DNA of 32,964 nt from Roseiarcus fermentans (GTDB lineage: Bacteria; Pseudomonadota; Alphaproteobacteria; Rhizobiales; Beijerinckiaceae): contig NZ_QNRK01000055.1 of assembly GCF_003315135.1 (NCBI RefSeq), positions 1 to 32,964 on the forward strand. The letters are read 5' to 3'. Of the stretch, positions 76 through 32,964 are shown one piece after another. Under the pieces are notes generated by a model. That model worked only from the letters and a program-made list of their open reading frames with translations, ran no database searches and was not told the origin of the DNA. How positions within the stretch are numbered: the stretch's first letter is position 1; the number at the start of each line of letters is the position of its first letter. A program made the translations under genes and the position numbers.

Positions 76-179
76 ATTCTCCCGAGCCGCGTATCATCCG
101 CCACCCGGTAGAATCCATCTCACTCAAAACGCAAAATCCGGCTCACAAGGGCCGCCGAATTCCAAGTGCGATTCCCCTG
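1..179 (-). mobile_element. Partial ISAs1-like insertion sequence, one terminus
   Basis: The transposase fragment is preceded on the minus strand by about 100 noncoding bases that end in CAGGGGAATC (reading leftwards from 179). ISAs1-family inverted repeats characteristically begin CAGGG, so the element boundary is placed at 179. The other end and the target duplication lie outside the window, so the boundary is an inference from the end motif alone. The element would sit directly against the terminator-like hairpin of the neighbouring metY gene. Confidence 0.45.
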
Positions 180-180
180 C

Positions 181-208
181 CCGGAGCGGCCGGCGGTCGC
201 CGCTCCGG
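181..208 (-). terminator. Hairpin downstream of metY
   Basis: CCGGAGCGGC at 181-190 and GCCGCTCCGG at 199-208 form a perfect 10-bp stem with an 8-nt loop, 11 bases past the metY stop codon. There is no clear U-run after the stem on the minus strand, so it is a terminator-like or transcript-stabilising hairpin rather than a canonical intrinsic terminator. Confidence 0.5.
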
Positions 209-219
209 GCGTGCTCCGA

Positions 220-1506
220 CTATGCCGACGCCTTCAGCGCCTGGTCGAGGTCGGCCAGGATGTCGTCGATGTGCTCGATGCCGATCGACAGCCGGACGTA
301 GCCCTCCGACACGCCGGTGGCGAGCTGGTCCTCGGCCGACAGCTGCGAATGCGTCGTGGTCGCCGGATGGATCGCGAGCGAGCGCGCGTCGCCGATGTTG
401 GCGACGTGGTAGAGCAGCTTCAAGGCGTCGATGAACGCCCGCCCCGCGTCCTTGCCGCCCTTGATCTCGAAGCCGACGAGACCGCCCTCGCCGCCTTTCA
501 GATACGCCTCCGCCCGGCGGCGCGCTTCGCCGACCTGCTGCGACGGATGAATGACCTTCTCCACTTCCGGGCGCTTGGCGAGCCAGGCCGCGACCTTGGC
601 GGCGTTGGCCGAGTGGCGCTCCATGCGCAACGGCAGCGTCTCGACGCCCTGCAGCGTCAGGAAGGCGTTGAACGGCGACATCGCGGCGCCGAGGTCGCGC
701 AGCAGGGTGACGCGCGCCTTGATGATGTAGGCGATGGGCCCGAGTGGCTTCACCGCCTCCGACCAGATCGCGCCGTGATAGCTGGGATCGGGCGTGTTCA
801 GCGCCGGCTGGCGCCCCTTGTGGTCCTCCCACGGGAAGGTCCCGCTGTCGACCAGCAGGCCGCCGATCGAGGTGCCGTGGCCGCCGAGGTATTTGGTCGA
901 GGAATAGACGATGATCGCCGCGCCGTGATCGAACGGGCGCGTCAGAATCGGCGCCGCGGTGTTGTCCATGATCAGCGGAATGCCGAAGCGCCGGCCGATC
1001 GCCGCCACTTCCGCGATCGGGAAGGCGATCAGCTTCGGGTTCGGCAGCGTCTCGGCGTAATAGGCGCGCGTCCGGTCGTCGGTGGCGCGGGCGAAGTTTT
1101 CCGGATCGTCCGGAGAGACGAAGCGGACCTCGATGCCCTGGTCCTTGAGGGTGTTGGCGAACAAATTCCAGGTGCCGCCGTAGAGGTCGGTCGAGGAGAC
1201 GACGTTGTCGCCGACCCTGGCGAGGTTCTGCAGCGCGAAGGCCGAGGCCGCCTGACCGCTCGCCAGCGCCAGCGCCGCGACGCCGCCCTCGAGCGCGGCG
1301 ATGCGCTTCTCGAGCACGTCGTTGGTCGGGTTCATGATGCGGGTGTAGATGTTGCCGAGTTCCTTGAGGGCGAACAGGTTCGCCGCGTGCTCGGCGCTCT
1401 GGAACTGGTACGAGGTCGTCTGGTAGATCGGAACCGCGACCGCGCCGGTGGTCGGGTCGGCGCGCCAGCCGGCGTGCAGGGCGAGCGTTTCGGGCTTCTG
1501 GGTCAT
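220..1506 (-). CDS. metY: O-acetylhomoserine aminocarboxypropyltransferase (O-acetylhomoserine sulfhydrylase)
   Basis: A 428-residue PLP enzyme of the Cys/Met metabolism family. It converts O-acetylhomoserine plus sulfide to homocysteine (direct sulfhydrylation) in the cytoplasm, feeding methionine synthesis. The PLP lysine is K205 in SSTKYLGGHG; the substrate and cofactor motifs SGQAASAF (about 83-90) and MDNTAAP (180-186) are present, and the C-terminus has SIGIEHIDDI. The length of about 430 residues, and the long insert with PDPSYHG, fit MetY rather than the roughly 390-residue cystathionine gamma-synthases. The ATG at 1506 is chosen over one 11 codons upstream because GGAGAGG lies just before it. 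It is a stand-alone gene with a hairpin after the stop. An O-succinylhomoserine-using relative (MetZ) cannot be fully excluded. Confidence 0.92.
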   Translation of the reverse strand: MTQKPETLALHAGWRADPTTGAVAVPIYQTTSYQFQSAEHAANLFALKELGNIYTRIMNPTNDVLEKRIAALEGGVAALALASGQAASAFALQNLARVGDNVVSSTDLYGGTWNLFANTLKDQGIEVRFVSPDDPENFARATDDRTRAYYAETLPNPKLIAFPIAEVAAIGRRFGIPLIMDNTAAPILTRPFDHGAAIIVYSSTKYLGGHGTSIGGLLVDSGTFPWEDHKGRQPALNTPDPSYHGAIWSEAVKPLGPIAYIIKARVTLLRDLGAAMSPFNAFLTLQGVETLPLRMERHSANAAKVAAWLAKRPEVEKVIHPSQQVGEARRRAEAYLKGGEGGLVGFEIKGGKDAGRAFIDALKLLYHVANIGDARSLAIHPATTTHSQLSAEDQLATGVSEGYVRLSIGIEHIDDILADLDQALKASA

Positions 1507-1683
1507 GGGTTCCTCTCCAAGGGACGCGCTCTGAATCACGCGTTTTCCACGCGGTTCAGAATTTAGTATATAAGCCGACTGGACTTTCGTCCTTATCGAT
1601 TTCCGGCGGGGGGCGCAAGCCGGCGGCGAGCAGGGAAGCCGTGCATCGGGCGCACGAGGCGGGCCCCGGCCGGCGAGCGGACG

Positions 1684-2034
1684 TCAATGTACGAATTTGA
1701 CGATCGCGAAGACCGCCCCGACGAGGGCGAGGATGAAGGTCAACACCCAGCGCAGCGTGTCGTTCTTGGCCTGGGCGATCTCGGTCCGGACGCCGGCGAT
1801 CTCGGTCCGGACGCTGGCGATCTCGGTCTTTACGCCGGCGATCTCCGCACGGAGCCTGGCTTCCGACGCGGCGATCTCGGCCCTGAGGTCCGCGACGTCG
1901 CTCTTCGTCGCGACGCCTTCGGCGAACGCGCCCTCCAGCGCTTCGGCCGAGGCGCGCGCCTGCTCGGGCGAGAAACCGCCCCGCGTCAAGCGGTCGATAT
2001 AGGTCAGCGGGTTGAACAATACCTGGGCGGTCAT
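1684..2034 (-). CDS. Small coiled-coil protein with C-terminal membrane anchor (DUF1640/CCDC90-like)
   Basis: A 116-residue protein. The N-terminal helix NPLTYIDRLTRGGFSPEQA matches the start of bacterial DUF1640-type proteins (relatives of mitochondrial MCUR1/CCDC90). TKSDVADLRAEI then leads into a long coiled coil and a single C-terminal transmembrane segment (LRWVLTFILALVGAVFAIV). The coiled coil contains near-identical 7-residue units (TEIAGVR, TEIASVR), encoded by 21-bp tandem repeats. The start at 2034 fits the family N-terminus; an in-frame ATG at 2085 and a TTG at 2142 would add residues unlike the family. No strong ribosome binding site is seen for any of them. The function of such proteins in bacteria is unknown. 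Confidence 0.7.
   Translation of the reverse strand: MTAQVLFNPLTYIDRLTRGGFSPEQARASAEALEGAFAEGVATKSDVADLRAEIAASEARLRAEIAGVKTEIASVRTEIAGVRTEIAQAKNDTLRWVLTFILALVGAVFAIVKFVH
1785..1855. repeat. 21-bp tandem repeat inside the coiled-coil gene
   Basis: About three and a half copies of a 21-bp unit (GATCTCGGTCCGGACGCCGG plus one base, with a few changes) lie head to tail. Each encodes one coiled-coil heptad, so copy-number change would lengthen or shorten the coil without breaking the frame or register. Confidence 0.75.
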
Positions 2035-2207
2035 GGCCGCATGAGATAGCACAAAGGCAGAGGCCGGCGCGAGAGGGACGCTCATGGCGCCGACGTTCGT
2101 CTTCCAAGCTTCACGCTTGCTGCTGTAGGAAAAACACGACAACCATCGATCGCGACATCGAGCCGCCGCGGCGAAACAGGGCCACGGCGAGCGCCCGGAG
2201 GAGAGCC

Positions 2208-2759
2208 ATGAGTTCAGAGCAGGGACACAATCACGCGCGCAGGTTTCATTTGCCCCACTCTCACCTGGAGTCGGTGTTCGGCGGCGACTGGTTCGGCGTG
2301 CGGGCCGAGGGGTTCGCGCGGTTCTTCGGCACGCCGACGTTTCTCATTGCCCAAACGGTCATCGTCGCGATCTGGATCTGGGCCAACGTCGCCGGGTTGA
2401 CGAATTTCGACGTCTATCCGTTCATTCTGCTGAACCTCGCGTTCTCGCTTCAGGCCGCCTACGCCGCGCCGCTGATCCTGCTCGCGCAGACGCGGCAGGC
2501 CGACCGCGACAAGGCCAACAGCCTCGCCGACGCCCAGCATCGCGAGGAACTGCATCAGGTCAACGAGGACCGGCAGGAGCAGATGCGCAAGCAGTCGGGG
2601 CTCATGCTCGATATGCTCGGGCAGAACACGGCGCTGACCGAGACGGTGGAGAAGCTGCTGCGCCAGAACACCGAACTCACCGAGACGGTGCGCGTGCTGG
2701 TCCAGCGCATCGAGACGATGACCGCCGAGGTCCACAGCCGGCTGGCGCGGCCGACCTGA
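2208..2759 (+). CDS. DUF1003 family membrane protein
   Basis: A 183-residue protein with the DUF1003 pattern. A hydrophilic N-terminus is followed by FFGTPTFLIAQTVIVAIWIWAN (first membrane helix, about 40-62), the short loop FDVYPFILLNLAFSLQAAYAAPLILLAQ (second helix, about 72-94) and a cytoplasmic tail with QTRQADRDK. The tail carries a heptad-like coiled coil with two near-identical 14-residue units (QNTALTETVEKLLR and QNTELTETVRVLVQ), suggesting oligomerisation. The ATG at 2208 follows GGAGGAGAG. The M23 peptidase gene starts 17 bases after the stop, so the two are probably cotranscribed. The family's molecular role is not established. Confidence 0.85.
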   Translation: MSSEQGHNHARRFHLPHSHLESVFGGDWFGVRAEGFARFFGTPTFLIAQTVIVAIWIWANVAGLTNFDVYPFILLNLAFSLQAAYAAPLILLAQTRQADRDKANSLADAQHREELHQVNEDRQEQMRKQSGLMLDMLGQNTALTETVEKLLRQNTELTETVRVLVQRIETMTAEVHSRLARPT

Positions 2760-2776
2760 GCCCGCAGGAGGGGTCC

Positions 2777-3925
2777 ATGAACGCCGTCCTGTCCGCTCTC
2801 GTCGTCGCCGCCTTCGCCCTCGCCCCGCCCGCGCTCGCCGCGGATCCGCATCCGCCGCAAGTGACCGTGTCGTTCCTCGCCGAGCCCGCCCCGATCGTGC
2901 AGGAGGGCGCGACGAAGCTCGTCTACGAAATGGCGCTGACCAACGTCGTCGCCGGCCGCTACGTCGTCGATTCGATCGAGGCGCGCGCCGGCGACACGGA
3001 CGCGATTTTCGACGCCAAGGCCCTCGCCGCGATGACGCAGCGCTTCGACCAGCGCGGCGCCGCCCCGGCGCCGGGCGATCCGCTGACGCTCGAGGGCGGC
3101 CGCGGCGCCGTCGTGTTCCTGATGCTCGACCTCGGCAAGGCGCAGGCGCCGGCGACGATTCTCCACCGGCTGCGCCTGATCGACGACAAGGGCGTGGCGC
3201 ATGTCGTCGAGCCTGCGCCGCTCGCGGTCGCGCAAGAGCGCCCGATCGTCGTCGGCCCGCCGCTCCGCGGCCAATGGATCGCCGGGGATTCGGTGCACAA
3301 CGGCCCGGACGCCGCCCACCGGCGGGCGATGATCGTCTTCGACGGGCGCGCCTTCATCGCCCAGCGCTACGCCATCGACTGGATGCAGGTCCGCGACGTC
3401 GACAGCAAGCTCACGACCTGGAAAGGCCCGGAGGACCAGAACGCGAGCTACTTCTGCTACGACCAGCCGATCCTGAGCGTCGCCGACGGCACGGTGGTGG
3501 CCGCGAGCGACGGCATGGCGGAGAACGTTCCGCACGCCGGGACCCGCGCCGAGCCGATCACGGCCGACAACGTCGGCGGCAATCACGTCGTGATCGAGAT
3601 CGCCCCGCATCGCTACGCCTTCTACGCCCACATCCGTCCCGGCACGGTGACGGCGAAGGTCGGCGAGCGCGTGCATCGGGGCGATGTGATCGGCCGCGTC
3701 GGCAACAGCGGCAACTCGACCGAGCCGCACCTGCATTTCCACATCGACGACCAGCCGTCGTTCCTCGCCGGCGACGGCGTTCCGTACGCGTTCGACAAGG
3801 GCCTCGCCAGCGGCGCGGTGCAGGGCGACGCCGCCGCCGAGGTGGCGACGTTCGGCGCGATCGGGCCGCAAAAACCGTTCGTCGACGACTATCCGGCCGA
3901 GAACGCGCTCGTCACCTTCGAATGA
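2777..3925 (+). CDS. Exported M23 family metallopeptidase
   Basis: A 382-residue protein with a signal peptide (about residues 1-21, cleavage after ALA). A roughly 150-residue N-terminal beta-rich region precedes a C-terminal LytM/M23 domain. The domain shows the zinc-binding HLHFH (H318, H320, H322), a histidine in YAFYAHIRPG (H285) and a VGNSGNSTEPH glycine-rich approach. The first zinc-ligand pair is less clear; H174 and D178 in HNGPD are candidates. M23 enzymes cut peptide cross-links of peptidoglycan or glycine-rich peptides in the periplasm. A strong AGGAGGGG precedes the ATG, and the gene follows the DUF1003 gene directly. It ends tail to tail, 18 bases from the convergent hydrolase gene. 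Confidence 0.88.
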   Translation: MNAVLSALVVAAFALAPPALAADPHPPQVTVSFLAEPAPIVQEGATKLVYEMALTNVVAGRYVVDSIEARAGDTDAIFDAKALAAMTQRFDQRGAAPAPGDPLTLEGGRGAVVFLMLDLGKAQAPATILHRLRLIDDKGVAHVVEPAPLAVAQERPIVVGPPLRGQWIAGDSVHNGPDAAHRRAMIVFDGRAFIAQRYAIDWMQVRDVDSKLTTWKGPEDQNASYFCYDQPILSVADGTVVAASDGMAENVPHAGTRAEPITADNVGGNHVVIEIAPHRYAFYAHIRPGTVTAKVGERVHRGDVIGRVGNSGNSTEPHLHFHIDDQPSFLAGDGVPYAFDKGLASGAVQGDAAAEVATFGAIGPQKPFVDDYPAENALVTFE

Positions 3926-17850: not shown

Positions 17851-17902
17851 AATTCATCTTCCCTTGTCTATCAATGGCTTATCGTGGTTCCATGCTCGGC
17901 TC

Positions 17903-18107
17903 GTAACTCCCAAGCCGGCAGCGAACAGCGCCGTCATCGCGAGCGAAGCGAAGCGATCCAGGGCCGCTGGGCCACTGTCGCGCCCTCTGGTCGTCCCGCC
18001 GCCCTTCGTTGCGAGCAGAAGACGGGGCGATTTTTTCCGCAGGAAGCAAGCCGCTGCATGGATTGCTTCGTCGCTTTGCTCCTCGCAATGACGGGGTTGG
18101 GAGTTAC
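17903..18107 (+). mobile_element. MITE copy A (205 bp, IS66-type ends)
   Basis: It starts GTAACTCCCAAGCC and ends GGTTGGGAGTTAC, giving 11-bp terminal inverted repeats. It is flanked by perfect 8-bp direct repeats CTCGGCTC (17895-17902 and 18108-18115), the mark of transposition. No transposase is encoded. The subterminal sequences (CGTCATCGCGAGCGAAGC and the complement of GCTCCTCGCAATGACG) also pair imperfectly. GTAA ends plus 8-bp duplications match the known behaviour of the IS66 family, so an IS66 transposase is the likely mover. Confidence 0.88.
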
Positions 18108-18286
18108 CTCGGCTCCGGCTCACTGTGCGTCGCGAGTCGTGAGCGTCATGGAAACGCATCGGGTCCGAAGAACCGCCCCCATGACGACGAAGGGCAAGGC
18201 CGCAAGCACCGAGGCTCTTTCAACATTCTTGACAAGTAAGGCACAGGCATTTGCGGTGAGTGTAAACTTTAGACTCGCAGACCAAA

Positions 18287-18914
18287 ATGACATCCTCAAT
18301 CAGAGAATTCTGGCGAGGGCTCGACGACTCGGTTCACCCGGACGACGCACCCTATTTCAAAGCCGACCGGCACAGCTTCAATCTAGAGTTTCCGCCACCT
18401 GCATTTATTGGTGACATAGACAATGCGCCCGTTGTGATTCTCATGCTCAATGGCGGATACGACAGAACTCTGACGCCTGCCGAGTTTGCGAGGCCTGACG
18501 ACCGAGCGGAATATCTGGCCTGGATAAAAGGCGAGCGGAAGGCGTTCCCTCAAAACCTCTCGGCTTATTACACTCAGCACCCAGAATTCTCGTTAGTCCG
18601 AGACGGCAGCGCTGTGATCGTCAACGCCGTCGCATATCGCTCTGAAGGAATTACCCGCGAACCGCAGAACCAGAAGTTGGCAAAGCTTCCCTTCAGTTCA
18701 TTCGCACCAAAGGTGGCTTCGACAGGAGGTCGTGCCTGCCGCAAGAGCCGGAGACAGGCTCGTCGTTGCACACCGTTGCGGCCTTTGGAATTTCAAAGCC
18801 GCCGAATTTGGTGATGCGCCAAACGTGTACCACTCTACAAATCCGGTGTCGCCGTATCTCTCGAACGAAATGCGCGCGAGGATAGCCTCATGGCTCAGGA
18901 AACCCGGTCGGTAA
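18287..18914 (+). pseudogene. Frameshifted hypothetical gene, possibly uracil-DNA-glycosylase-like fold
   Basis: The first frame (18287 to about 18690) gives MTSSIREFWRGLDDSVHPDD, then PVVILMLNGGYD and AVIVNAVAYRSEG. The reading continues naturally one base out of register as LPSVHSHQRWLRQEVVPAAR, then HRCGLWNF and VYHSTNPVSPYLSNEMRARI. Removing a single C from CCC at 18689-18691 joins them into a protein of about 208 residues. The spacing of a hydrophobic strand with a small loop and a late H-S-T-P motif is reminiscent of the UDG superfamily, but this is weak. Base composition is less GC-rich than the neighbours, suggesting transfer. The stop codon is provided by the inserted MITE. The frameshift could be real or a sequencing error. 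Confidence 0.65.
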
Positions 18915-19115
18915 CTCCCAACCCCGTCATTGCGAGGAGCAAAGCGACGAAGCAATCCATGCCGCGGCTTGCTTCCTGCGGAAAAAATCGCCCCGTCTTC
19001 TGCTCGCAACGAAGGGCGGCGGGACGACCAGAGGGCGCGACAGCGGCCCAGCGGCCCTGGATCGCTTCGCTTCGCTCGCGATGACGGCGCTGTTCGCTGC
19101 CGGCTTGGGAGTTAC
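18911..19115 (-). mobile_element. MITE copy B (205 bp, inverted orientation)
   Basis: Same length and same 11-bp ends as copy A, but in the opposite orientation. It is flanked by perfect 8-bp direct repeats CCCGGTCG (18903-18910 and 19116-19123). It is inserted at the 3' end of the frameshifted gene: its first bases (GTAA) create the in-frame TAA, whereas without it the gene would read on three more codons to a TAA just past the insertion. Confidence 0.88.
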
Positions 19116-19152
19116 CCCGGTCGCCGCAGAAGCTAAAATTTCATTGAATTCA

Positions 19153-22755
<3,603 letters not shown>

Positions 22756-22955
22756 GATGGTTTGATCCCGCGCCCACGCTTTGCCGCGAGCCTACGAAAG
22801 GTCCGACGATCCGCGCAACCGTGGGCGGTAGAGGCCGGTCTTGGACAGCGCCGCGATCTTCGAGACGGCATGGGGTGTGTCGCCACGCCGCCAGATCCTC
22901 CGCTGACGCTGCGCTCCAGGCAACGACGTGGCGCAGGTCGGAGAGGCGATCTCAT

Positions 22956-23237
22956 TCAGGGGGAGCGTCGGTGAGCGTCGACATAGGCGCGCAAGACGGC
23001 GTTCATCCGCGTGAGATGCCCTCTGCCTTGCGCCTTGAACCAGTCGAGGATGTCTGTGTCGAGGCGCAGATGCACGGAGGTCTTGCCGCTCGGCACGACG
23101 ACGCGAGCCTGTTTCCAGAAGTCCTCCCCCAGCGGCTCCGCTTCGGGCGCGTCGGGGCGCGTTTGATCTTCCCCGCGGGCTCTCCTGGCTTGAATCTCGC
23201 TAAGGGAAAATCTCACGGTGGTCGGTTTCTCGCTCAT
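22956..23237 (-). CDS. brnA: BrnA antitoxin
   Basis: A 93-residue protein. The basic/charged N-terminus (SEKPTTVRFSLSEIQARR) is followed by the BrnA core: GKTSVHLRLDTDILDWFKAQGRGHLTRMNAVLRAYVDAH, a ribbon-helix-helix fold that binds DNA. BrnA binds and neutralises BrnT and represses the operon promoter. The ATG at 23237 lies inside the 3' end of brnT (overlap of 38 bases), the usual coupled arrangement. Downstream of its stop is a 200-bp gap to the oxoprolinase start, in which I see no gene. Confidence 0.9.
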   Translation of the reverse strand: MSEKPTTVRFSLSEIQARRARGEDQTRPDAPEAEPLGEDFWKQARVVVPSGKTSVHLRLDTDILDWFKAQGRGHLTRMNAVLRAYVDAHRRSP

Positions 23238-23487
23238 TCCTGTTCGCCTTCTGCGCGGTGATGATCCGAATGACCGCGTCGCCGCGCCAAGTGTACGCCA
23301 CGCGGTAAATCTCCGTTTCCACGCGGCCGAGGGCTATGAACCGCGACTCGCCGTAATCCTCGCGATCGTCGATCCTCTCGATGATCTCGTTGGCGAACAT
23401 CGCGGCGGCGGTGAGAAAGGACACGCCGTGCTTCGCGAGATTGTGCGCCGCCTTGTCCTCGTCCCACTCGAACTGCAAATCGCCCAT
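23200..23487 (-). CDS. brnT: BrnT toxin (RelE-like ribonuclease)
   Basis: A 95-residue protein with the complete BrnT pattern. FEWDEDKAAHNLAKHGVSF opens it, then FANEIIERIDDREDYGESRF, ALGRVETEIYRVAYTWRGDAVIRII and a terminal AQKANRNERETD. BrnT is a ribosome-independent RNase of the RelE fold; the active-site basic and aromatic residues are in the ITAQKAN-R-ER end and the R-VAYTWR strand. No truncation is visible, so it is probably functional. The ATG at 23485-23487 has GGAA upstream. A MITE separates this gene from its promoter. Confidence 0.92.
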   Translation of the reverse strand: MGDLQFEWDEDKAAHNLAKHGVSFLTAAAMFANEIIERIDDREDYGESRFIALGRVETEIYRVAYTWRGDAVIRIITAQKANRNERETDHREIFP

Positions 23488-23503
23488 TCAAATTCCGCAT
23501 GGC

Positions 23504-23708
23504 GTAACTCCCAAGCCGGTAGCCAACAGCGCCGTCATCGCGAGCGAAGCGAAGCGATCCAGGGCCGCTGGGCCGCTGTCGCGCCCTCTGGTCGTCCAGC
23601 CGCCCTTCGTTGCGAGCAGAAGACGGAGCGATTTTTTCCGCAGGAAGCAAGCGGCGGCATGGATTGCTTCGTCGCTTTGCTCCTCGCAATGACGGGGTTG
23701 GGAGTTAC
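23504..23708 (+). mobile_element. MITE copy C (205 bp) in the brnTA leader
   Basis: Same ends as copies A and B, and about 96 percent identical to A by eye. It is flanked by perfect 8-bp direct repeats CGCATGGC (23496-23503 and 23709-23716). It lies between the brnTA promoter and the brnT start codon, so the brnTA transcript carries the element as a structured leader. Confidence 0.9.
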
Positions 23709-23718
23709 CGCATGGCTA

Positions 23719-31148: not shown

Positions 31149-31213
31149 GGCCTGCCTTCGCTTTGGGGCTCGCCATGCTACCATTGCGCGGCAGGACGGG
31201 AAATCCGCGCCTG

Positions 31214-31426
31214 TAGGGCGGGCTCGCCGAGCCCGCTGGCGCGGTCAGCGACCGCGCCCTACAGGGGCCCGCCGGCGCGGTCAGTAGGGCGGGCTCGCTG
31301 AGCCCGCCGGCGCGGTCAGCGACCGCGCCCTACAGGAGCCGGCCGGCGCGGTCAGTAGGGCGGGCTCGCTGAGCCCGCCGGCGCGGTCAGCGACCGCGCC
31401 CTACAGGGGCCCGCGGGCGCGGTCGA
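31214..31426. repeat. Three tandem 71-bp repeats with paired hairpins
   Basis: Copies begin at 31214, 31285 and 31356, a period of exactly 71 bases, nearly identical. Each holds two perfect 8-bp hairpins with 3-nt loops (GCGGGCTC-GCT-GAGCCCGC and GCGCGGTC-AGC-GACCGCGC). Both are enclosed by an outer stem TAGGGCG/CGCCCTA, so each unit can fold as a cloverleaf or cruciform. The array fills most of the gap between the CMD-family gene and the divergent LLM-class gene. Confidence 0.85.
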
Positions 31427-32615: not shown

Positions 32616-32780
32616 GTAACTCCCAAGCCGGCAGCGAACAGCGCCGTCATCGCGAGCGAAGCGAAGCGATCCAGGGCCGCTGGGCCGCTGTCGCGCCCTC
32701 TGATCGTCCCGCCGCCCTTCGTTGCGAGCAGAAGACGGAGCGATTCTTTCCGCAGGAAGCAAGCGGCGGCATGGATTGCT
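32616..32780 (+). mobile_element. MITE copy D, 3'-truncated
   Basis: It begins with the same GTAACTCCCAAGCCGGCAGC as the full copies and follows them for 165 bases. It stops abruptly at GGATTGCT (32773-32780), where the full copies continue for 40 more bases. The right inverted repeat and target duplication are therefore missing. Confidence 0.85.
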
Positions 32781-32964
32781 CTTATGTCCTTCGTCAAGAG
32801 GTCGGACACGCGATCTCGTCTCCGCTCCTTGTTGGGAGGAAGGATGGCCTCGGATGATTGCGCAGGGGTGGGGGCGAAGCCTGTTGGACGTCGGTGATCA
32901 AACTCTAATACGCGGGTTTGTTCCGCATGTCCGAGTTGCGTCCGGGGCTGCTCCGCGTCTTCGT
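32781..32964. other. Unassigned sequence to the right window edge
   Basis: No convincing gene is visible. On the minus strand a short frame starts GTG TCC GAC (MSDLLTKDIR) at 32809 and runs into the truncated MITE, so it is chimeric. On the plus strand an ATG at 32927 opens a frame (MSELRPGLLRVF) that reaches the window edge without a ribosome binding site. The sharp junction at 32780 suggests that another mobile or recombined segment begins here. Confidence 0.4.

What the first reader, a model, noticed from the sequence alone, without database searches (positions are those of the whole stretch)
17895..23716. A MITE family with IS66-type ends and three perfect 8-bp target duplications
Three full copies (17903-18107, 18911-19115, 23504-23708) are each exactly 205 bp, with the same 11-bp inverted ends GTAACTCCCAA. 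Each is flanked by a different perfect 8-bp direct repeat (CTCGGCTC, CCCGGTCG, CGCATGGC). This is strong direct evidence of transposition rather than of REP-type duplication. No coding capacity exists in the element. From known IS66-family behaviour (ends starting GTAA, 8-bp duplications), an IS66 transposase elsewhere in the genome is the likely mover. High identity between copies suggests recent movement.
Basis: partly seen in the sequence, partly recalled or inferred. Interest (0 to 1): 0.85.

Follow-up and report, generated by a model that had tools for sequence, protein, structure and literature searches.

The report
Jumping mini-elements stacked at IHF-like sites
A short non-coding jumping element has multiplied through this bacterial genome, apparently driven by an IS66-type transposon with the same ends, and more than half of the insertion sites examined lie at one fixed distance from a sequence resembling the binding site of the DNA-bending protein IHF, where copies can pile up in tandem.

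Summary
In detail: three 205-bp copies, 11-bp ends GTAACTCCCAA and three different perfect 8-bp duplications. The genome holds 156 exact ends against 0 for the pattern read backwards. Of 99 copies that I paired, 65 have 8/8 matching flanking 8-mers. The IS66 reading is supported: contigs end inside a longer element with the same ends, matching duplications and an IS66-like transposase C-terminus. Octadecabacter has a complete IS66 element with GTAACTCCCAAG ends.
Beyond the finding: an IHF-consensus core lies 24 bp outside the duplication on one side in 45 of 78 sites. After dereplication it remains in 15 of 46 sites (0.17 expected), 9 of them unrelated outside the core. Window copy 1 fits perfectly; copies 2 and 3 do not. 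Copies also stack in tandem with the same or nearly the same 8-mer. In 27 of 33 array members the best match lies elsewhere. The motif-proximal member looks younger in 6 of 8 arrays, or 10 of 12 with one base of slip. IHF's role is inferred; the transposase body is not assembled; no empty site was found.

The parts
17903..18107 (+). MITE copy 1, 205 bp, ends GTAACTCCCAA
17895..17902 (.). 8-bp target duplication CTCGGCTC, left of copy 1
18108..18115 (.). 8-bp target duplication CTCGGCTC, right of copy 1
17869..17881 (+). TATCAATGGCTTA, perfect match to the IHF consensus WATCARNNNNTTR at the standard distance (core 24 bp outside the duplication)
   Evidence: binding itself not tested
18911..19115 (-). 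MITE copy 2, 205 bp
18903..18910 (.). 8-bp target duplication CCCGGTCG, left of copy 2
19116..19123 (.). 8-bp target duplication CCCGGTCG, right of copy 2
19137..19149 (-). weak IHF-like sequence at the standard distance of copy 2 (ATTCAATGAAATT, 3 mismatches to the consensus); not counted as a motif
23504..23708 (+). MITE copy 3, 205 bp; no IHF-like motif at the standard distance (4 and 6 mismatches)
23496..23503 (.). 8-bp target duplication CGCATGGC, left of copy 3
23709..23716 (.). 8-bp target duplication CGCATGGC, right of copy 3
32616..32780 (+). Left 165 bp of a fourth copy (4 mismatches to copy 2)
32781..32964 (+). Start of an unidentified second mobile element interrupting copy 4 after GGATTGC; runs to the contig end; the same 184 bp occur complete at 6 further contig ends and in two pieces in C9

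Best explanation
The copies are non-autonomous elements (MITEs) moved in trans by an IS66-family transposase that recognises the short end GTAACTCCCAA and makes an 8-bp staggered cut. SHOWN: shared ends, 8-bp duplications, several subfamilies with different interiors, and a longer element with the same ends and an IS66-like C-terminus in the same genome. SHOWN STATISTICALLY: insertion prefers a point whose 8-bp target starts 24 bp from a TCARNNNNTTR core (IHF consensus) on one side. INFERRED: IHF, or another protein that reads this motif, bends the target and holds the transposase at that point. Because insertion does not destroy the motif, the same 8-bp target next to it can be used again. 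Each round puts a new copy on the motif side and pushes older copies outward, which gives motif - 8-mer - new copy - 8-mer - older copy - 8-mer.
For: Ends and duplications. IS66 partner. Target motif: the core with <=1 mismatch sits at -24 in 45 of 78 sites, on both sides in none; a random-offset control gave mean 0.37, maximum 3 in 1000 draws. After dereplication 15 of 46 sites keep it against 0.17 expected, nominal binomial P 5e-25; 9 of the 15 are at most 48% identical to any other motif flank outside the core, 6 are 67-88%. Element orientation towards the motif is 14 to 12. The motif also adjoins 6 of 18 fetched GTAACTCCCAA elements or ends from other genomes and 2 of the 4 local IS66 right ends. 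Arrays: 13 of 79 sites. Best match elsewhere for 27 of 33 members. Motif-proximal member closer to a copy elsewhere than the most distal one in 6 of 8 arrays without slip, 10 of 12 with one base of slip. Decayed ends (>=7/11) on the distal side in 19 of 50 motif sites, on the motif side in 4 of 50, at sites without motif in 7 of 56 flanks, background 1.4%. An IHF-alpha gene is above cut-off in 5 of 5 genus genomes tested.
Against: IHF binding is not tested. 28 of 78 sites lack the motif even with one base of slip; window copies 2 and 3 lack it at the standard distance. The one complete copy each examined of the Octadecabacter, Bradyrhizobium and C72 IS66 elements lacks it, so it may be lineage-specific. 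35 of the 45 motif flanks fall into two related sequence families of 25 and 10, so much of the raw count is not independent. One array (C17:44193) has the motif on one side without slip and on the other with slip; it counts against polarity and for it. C24 counts against it in both, C36 only. A few arrays contain near-identical neighbours. The full transposase gene is not in the assembly, and no empty site was found.
Confidence: 0.66

Rival explanations
1. The target motif is read by the transposase itself or by a host protein other than IHF; the resemblance to the IHF consensus is incidental. Fixed-distance targeting and polar arrays would still hold.
For: Conservation goes beyond the IHF core in the two large flank families (type I CCGgGCc.GttTtgaGc.TTTTCAa.g..TTGCG.cGGatTTTCC). 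Relatives of the element in other bacteria lack the motif.
Against: The core fits WATCARNNNNTTR in spacing and in the R after TCA. Nine sites share only the core. IHF-alpha is encoded. An IHF site at -9 to -35 of the leader also positions integration in E. coli CRISPR adaptation (PMC10011333, passages).
Confidence: 0.3
2. The tandem arrays arose by unequal recombination or slippage between duplications, not by repeated insertion.
For: Near-identical neighbours in C11 (two 226-bp copies) and C22 (466/467 bp). Mismatched flanking 8-mers in C14 and C36 suggest recombination between copies.
Against: 27 of 33 members match copies elsewhere better than their neighbours. Arrays mix unrelated subfamilies (142 next to 205 bp) with one spacer 8-mer.
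Confidence: 0.17
3. The roughly 44-bp flanking sequence is itself a mobile or REP-like repeat that spreads together with the arrays, so the association reflects nesting rather than target choice.
For: The type I pattern has 63 matches here, 17, 10 and 6 in three relatives and none in the other seven, reversed control 0 throughout; those four genomes all carry GTAACTCCCAA ends. In places it is part of a tandem unit (L162, 159-bp spacing).
Against: Nine of the 15 dereplicated motif sites share nothing but the core with other motif flanks. G027, one of the seven, carries the ends with the core next to three of them but has no type I match.
Confidence: 0.25
4. The mover belongs to another transposase family that makes 8-bp duplications.
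For: The local transposase gene is seen only as its last 50 aa, which match no Pfam family alone. The full-length local IS66 genes could not be tied to these ends.
Against: Among the 20 listed plasmid hits of the 50 aa, 10 are annotated as IS66 transposases, best 69% identity. The Octadecabacter relative with GTAACTCCCAAG ends is PF03050 and NF033517.
Confidence: 0.05

Closest known systems
IS66-family insertion sequences (single-transposase type, e.g. the 1605-bp Octadecabacter arcticus element on NC_020909)
   Same: GTAACTCCCAAG ends, 8-bp duplication, homologous transposase C-terminus. Paracoccus IS66 elements are also listed with 8-bp direct repeats (PMC3281130, passages).
   Different: The window copies encode nothing; the Octadecabacter copy examined lacks the IHF-like motif.
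Bacterial MITEs with a proposed parent IS: MITECca01 (IS982; PMC9769881, passages) and MITEPsy1 (probably ISPsy2; PMC3189936, passages)
   Same: Short, TIR-bounded, without transposase; presumed parent IS in the same genome; high copy number (MITECca01) or observed mobility (MITEPsy1).
   Different: IS66-type ends, 8-bp duplications, several interiors, fixed-distance target and tandem arrays.
IS1 and its IHF-binding insertion hot spot in E. coli (Prentki 1987, seen only as a reference title in PMC11043490; IHF effect on IS1/IS5 insertion from passages of that paper)
   Same: An IS whose insertion is linked to IHF, including a hot spot by the cited title.
   Different: The passages describe IHF sites in the ends of IS1 and IS5; here the motif is in the target, at one exact distance, at many sites, with arrays.
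IS427-group elements of Paracoccus with a partial IHF consensus inside their left end (PMC3281130, passage); Neisseria Correia elements with an internal IHF site (PMC2229807, passages)
   Same: Small mobile elements linked to an IHF-type site.
   Different: There the site lies inside the element; here it lies in the target.
E. coli CRISPR adaptation: IHF-bound leader and leader-proximal spacer addition with repeat duplication (PMC10011333, passages)
   Same: IHF site at -9 to -35 of the insertion point (here -26 to -14), duplication of the target, newest unit next to the leader.
   Different: The units here are transposons with 8-bp spacers; cas genes were not searched for.

Membership tests
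MITE (non-autonomous DNA transposon) | Short, no transposase, terminal inverted repeats | tested here: met
   205 bp, 11-bp TIR, no transposase-like ORF
MITE (non-autonomous DNA transposon) | Target-site duplications at dispersed copies | tested here: met
   65 of 99 with 8/8, 22 with 7/8, 12 with fewer
MITE (non-autonomous DNA transposon) | Autonomous element with the same ends | tested here: met
   Longer element with GTAACTCCCAAGCCG ends and matching 8-mers; only its termini are assembled
MITE (non-autonomous DNA transposon) | Empty sites in related strains | tested here: inconclusive
   In the listed matches from genus relatives, homology stops before the sites of copies 1 and 2 (list cut); copy 3 was not searched; no second strain of the species was available
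IS66 family (the mover) | DDE_Tnp_IS66 transposase | tested here: inconclusive
   Local copies show only the last 50 aa; tblastn hits are largely annotated IS66, no Pfam hit alone; the Octadecabacter relative meets PF03050 and NF033517
IS66 family (the mover) | Ends beginning GTAA and 8-bp duplications | tested here: met
   Left/right pairs C43/C11 AATGAGGG and C13/C25 AGCCGCCC; the family rule is recalled, 8-bp repeats of IS66 also seen
IS66 family (the mover) | Accessory tnpA/tnpB genes of the three-gene type (recalled) | not testable with these tools
   Interior of the local element not assembled; the Octadecabacter element has one annotated gene
IHF binding site (target motif) | Match to WATCARNNNNTTR | tested here: met
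   <=1 mismatch at -26 in 30 of 141 flanks, mean 0.11 and maximum 4 at the other 47 offsets; consensus as printed in PMC7962754
IHF binding site (target motif) | Binding and bending by IHF | not testable with these tools
   Needs purified protein
CRISPR array | Direct repeats with unique spacers and Cas1-Cas2 | not tested
   cas genes were not searched for; the units seen are TIR-bounded elements with about 8-bp spacers, so it is used as an analogy only

The most novel reading that the evidence does not exclude
An IS66-type transposase uses IHF-bent DNA as a molecular ruler: it inserts its own IS and several MITE families at a fixed distance from IHF sites and re-uses the same 8-bp target. This builds polar, chronologically ordered transposon arrays in the geometry of CRISPR leader-proximal adaptation, without Cas proteins.
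Probability: 0.47. Interest if true: 0.8.

Novelty: new variant of a known kind. Interest (0 to 1): 0.66.

Why it matters
I found no description of IS66-derived MITEs or of IHF-guided IS66 insertion in the listings or in the passages opened from them; this covers open-licence papers only, and most of the listed papers were not opened. If the reading holds, it gives a simple genetic system to test how IHF positions a DDE transposase. It would explain how tandem element arrays with identical short spacers form without tandem duplication, and it would be a transposon counterpart of IHF-guided CRISPR spacer addition. The arrays would also be ordered records of past insertions.

Tried and rejected
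1) The full-length IS66 genes in the genome as movers: C72 has ends GTAACCGGTACGA with duplication GTTCGAGT; for C12 no pair of ends was found and no GTAACTCCCAA within one mismatch in the fetched stretch, but its contig ends close to the gene, so its ends stay unknown. 2) An apparent 1.1-kb element with correct ends in C4: it is two separate MITEs, each with its own duplication. 3) Known RNA family in the window: no Rfam match at gathering score. 4) Common secondary structure of the 44-bp flank: alignment folding gave 0.0 for two sets and -0.96 for one. 5) Empty sites in genus genomes: flank homology ends at gene boundaries before the sites of copies 1 and 2. 7) Literature: the search for the inner repeat string listed 20 of 90 papers, by title unrelated to it; two searches found no paper.

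Limits on counts: the listings behind the catalogue were cut at 100 of 156 ends and 100 of 110, so some copies were not read. The pairing rule prefers matching 8-mers. 78 of 79 sites had long enough flanks, and 15 of 156 flanks were dropped because they are themselves element ends. 50 ends with at most one mismatch stayed unpaired, many at contig ends. The 44-nt consensus was derived from the same sites. The dereplication is greedy at 60% identity; 6 of its 15 motif sites still resemble other motif flanks. 'Youth' of an array member is only its best identity to a copy elsewhere. In one search one base of slip was allowed and then 1 site has the motif on both sides. Family genomes outside the genus that hold one or two ends were not read except G197.
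Full report
Observation. The three elements are as described: 205 bp each, 11-bp perfect inverted ends, and three different perfect 8-bp flanking repeats. Pairwise differences are 2, 7 and 5 bases. A fourth copy, 32616-32780, keeps the left 165 bp and is interrupted by another element up to the contig end. The window is the whole contig C55 of a 6.79-Mb, 90-contig draft genome.

Genome-wide. BLAST with copy 1 gave 48 matches in the genome. The 11-mer GTAACTCCCAA occurs 156 times, against 0 for the pattern read backwards. In a sample of 199 genomes of the family, own genome included, 22 hold the 11-mer; apart from the own genome, counts above two come only from the same genus (7, 7 and 5). The burst is therefore specific to this lineage within that sample. 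From 190,654 own-genome bases I paired 99 copies of 138-481 bp. The commonest spans are 205 bp (35) and 193 bp (13); others are 142, 216, 225-226 and 235-248 bp with different interiors. Flanking 8-mers agree 8/8 in 65, 7/8 in 22 and less in 12. The pairing rule favoured agreement, but a random 8/8 match has odds of about 1 in 65,536.

The mover. Contigs C43, C13, C16 and C64 end at the same point 172 bp inside an element with end GTAACTCCCAAGCCG, and C11 and C25 end 116 bp inside its other terminus, GTAACTCCCAAGCCGGGG. C43 and C11 share the flanking 8-mer AATGAGGG, C13 and C25 AGCCGCCC, as the two sides of inserted copies would whose common interior was collapsed or dropped by the assembler. 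The 172 bp encode the last 50 aa of a protein. Its best plasmid matches are IS66 transposases, 69% identity in Octadecabacter; of 20 listed records 10 name IS66, 1 a transposase, 9 have no feature. The Octadecabacter element is 1605 bp, has ends GTAACTCCCAAG and the duplication TTTATTTG, and its protein is PF03050 and NF033517. A Bradyrhizobium relative has ends GTAACTGCCCAG and the duplication CCGAACCG. A decayed relative lies in the genus genome G138. Of the full-length IS66 genes of this genome, C72 has different ends, and the ends of C12 could not be established.

Target. Aligning the flanks on the duplication showed a one-sided motif. TCA stands at -24 in 44 of 141 flanks; the mean over all offsets is 1.9. 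The IHF consensus WATCARNNNNTTR (as printed in PMC7962754) fits with at most one mismatch at exactly -26 in 30 of 141 flanks, against a mean of 0.11 and a maximum of 4 at the other 47 offsets. The core with at most one mismatch is found in 45 of 78 sites, on both sides in none. Many of these flanks belong to two related 44-bp families (25 and 10), so I dereplicated: 15 of 46 sites still carry the core, 0.17 expected. Six of the 15 are still 67-88% identical to another motif flank outside the core; the other nine are at most 48%. Window copy 1, one of the nine, has a perfect match; copies 2 and 3 do not. Two of four IS66 right ends have it. In other genomes 6 of 18 fetched GTAACTCCCAA elements or ends have it in the same register, three of them (G027) sharing one flank sequence. 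The Octadecabacter, Bradyrhizobium and C72 elements do not. IHF-alpha is encoded above cut-off in all five genus genomes searched. The direction of the MITE relative to the motif is 14 to 12 among single 192-206-bp copies.

Arrays. Thirteen of 79 sites hold 2-5 copies in a row separated by about 8 bp, usually the same or nearly the same 8-mer; C18 has 142, 205, 205 and 205 bp with AATTGGAC five times. At C25 two GTAACTCCCAA elements with AGCCGCCG/AGCCGTCC precede the IS66 terminus with AGCCGCCC, and at C13, the presumed other side, the motif adjoins the IS66 end. Members match copies elsewhere better than their neighbours in 27 of 33 cases, which argues against tandem duplication. Ordered from the motif outward, the first member is closer to a copy elsewhere than the last in 6 of 8 arrays with the motif at the exact distance, and in 10 of 12 when one base of slip is allowed. 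The array C17:44193 changes sides between these two counts; C24 is against in both; C36 is against with slip; C22 shows no motif on its contig. Decayed element ends lie beyond the distal side in 19 of 50 motif sites, beyond the motif side in 4 of 50, in 7 of 56 flanks without motif, and in 1.4% of background positions.

Mechanism. Shown: ends, duplications, partner element, fixed distance, mixed arrays. Inferred: IHF, or a protein reading the same motif, positions the IS66 transposase; the motif survives each insertion, so the adjacent 8-mer is used again and arrays grow on the motif side. In E. coli CRISPR adaptation an IHF site at -9 to -35 of the leader positions leader-proximal integration (PMC10011333, passages); the geometry here, -26 to -14, is alike. 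The proteins and the purpose need not be.

What remains open. Type I flank sequences occur in four genomes that carry these elements and in none of the other seven genus genomes searched; one of those seven, G027, also carries the ends, and one, G199, was not in the end search. Why is not explained; the flanks could be mobile themselves. No empty site was found. Part of the interior of the MITE, the CGTCATTGCGAG...GCAATCC module, is a separate dispersed repeat. It has many matches in G066, which has no GTAACTCCCAA end, and similar short pieces lie on plasmids of Methylosinus, Novosphingobium and Methylobacterium.

Novelty. MITEs driven by an IS, and IHF effects on transposition, are known kinds. 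The combination of IS66-driven MITEs, fixed-distance IHF-like targets and polar arrays with shared 8-mers was not found in my searches (open-licence papers only, most seen only as listings; passages opened).

Noticed in passing
32781-32964; also contig ends of C1, C22, C32, C42, C60, C66, and C9: An unidentified element interrupts the MITE after GGATTGC at the same point in all seven contig ends read; in C9 the same element follows a GGATTGC in another context. It looks like an IS that targets this dispersed repeat.
   Followed up: partly
L106 (G000:C9), about 96-1660: An IS110-family element (PF01548, NF033542, described there as RNA-guided) sits inside that unidentified element.
   Followed up: partly
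23200-23503: MITE copy 3 begins 16 bp upstream of the start codon of a brnT/brnA toxin-antitoxin pair (PF04365/PF14384), so it may alter its promoter.
   Followed up: no
18890-18914: The TAA of GTAA in copy 2 supplies a stop codon a few codons before the former stop of the frame read up to the insertion; the ORF at 18287-18814 appears frameshifted relative to it.
   Followed up: no
31213-31425: Three tandem 71-bp repeats, 94-100% identical to the reference copy, with inverted repeats visible by eye.
   Followed up: no
1753-1857: Repeats with 21-bp spacing where several ORFs overlap.
   Followed up: no
L031 (G000:C72) 95-3110: A different IS66 element with ends GTAACCGGTACGA and perfect 8-bp duplication GTTCGAGT.
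   Followed up: partly
L045/L160 (G000:C22) 139-1942: Array of five elements (142, 216, 481, 466, 467 bp) with GTCATTTT throughout; contig C66 ends inside an element with the same 8-mer next to an IHF-like flank, so the array may continue there.
   Followed up: partly
L162 (G000:C21), L175 and L179 (G167): The 44-bp IHF-like flank sequence recurs at 147- or 159-bp spacing as part of tandem units.
   Followed up: partly
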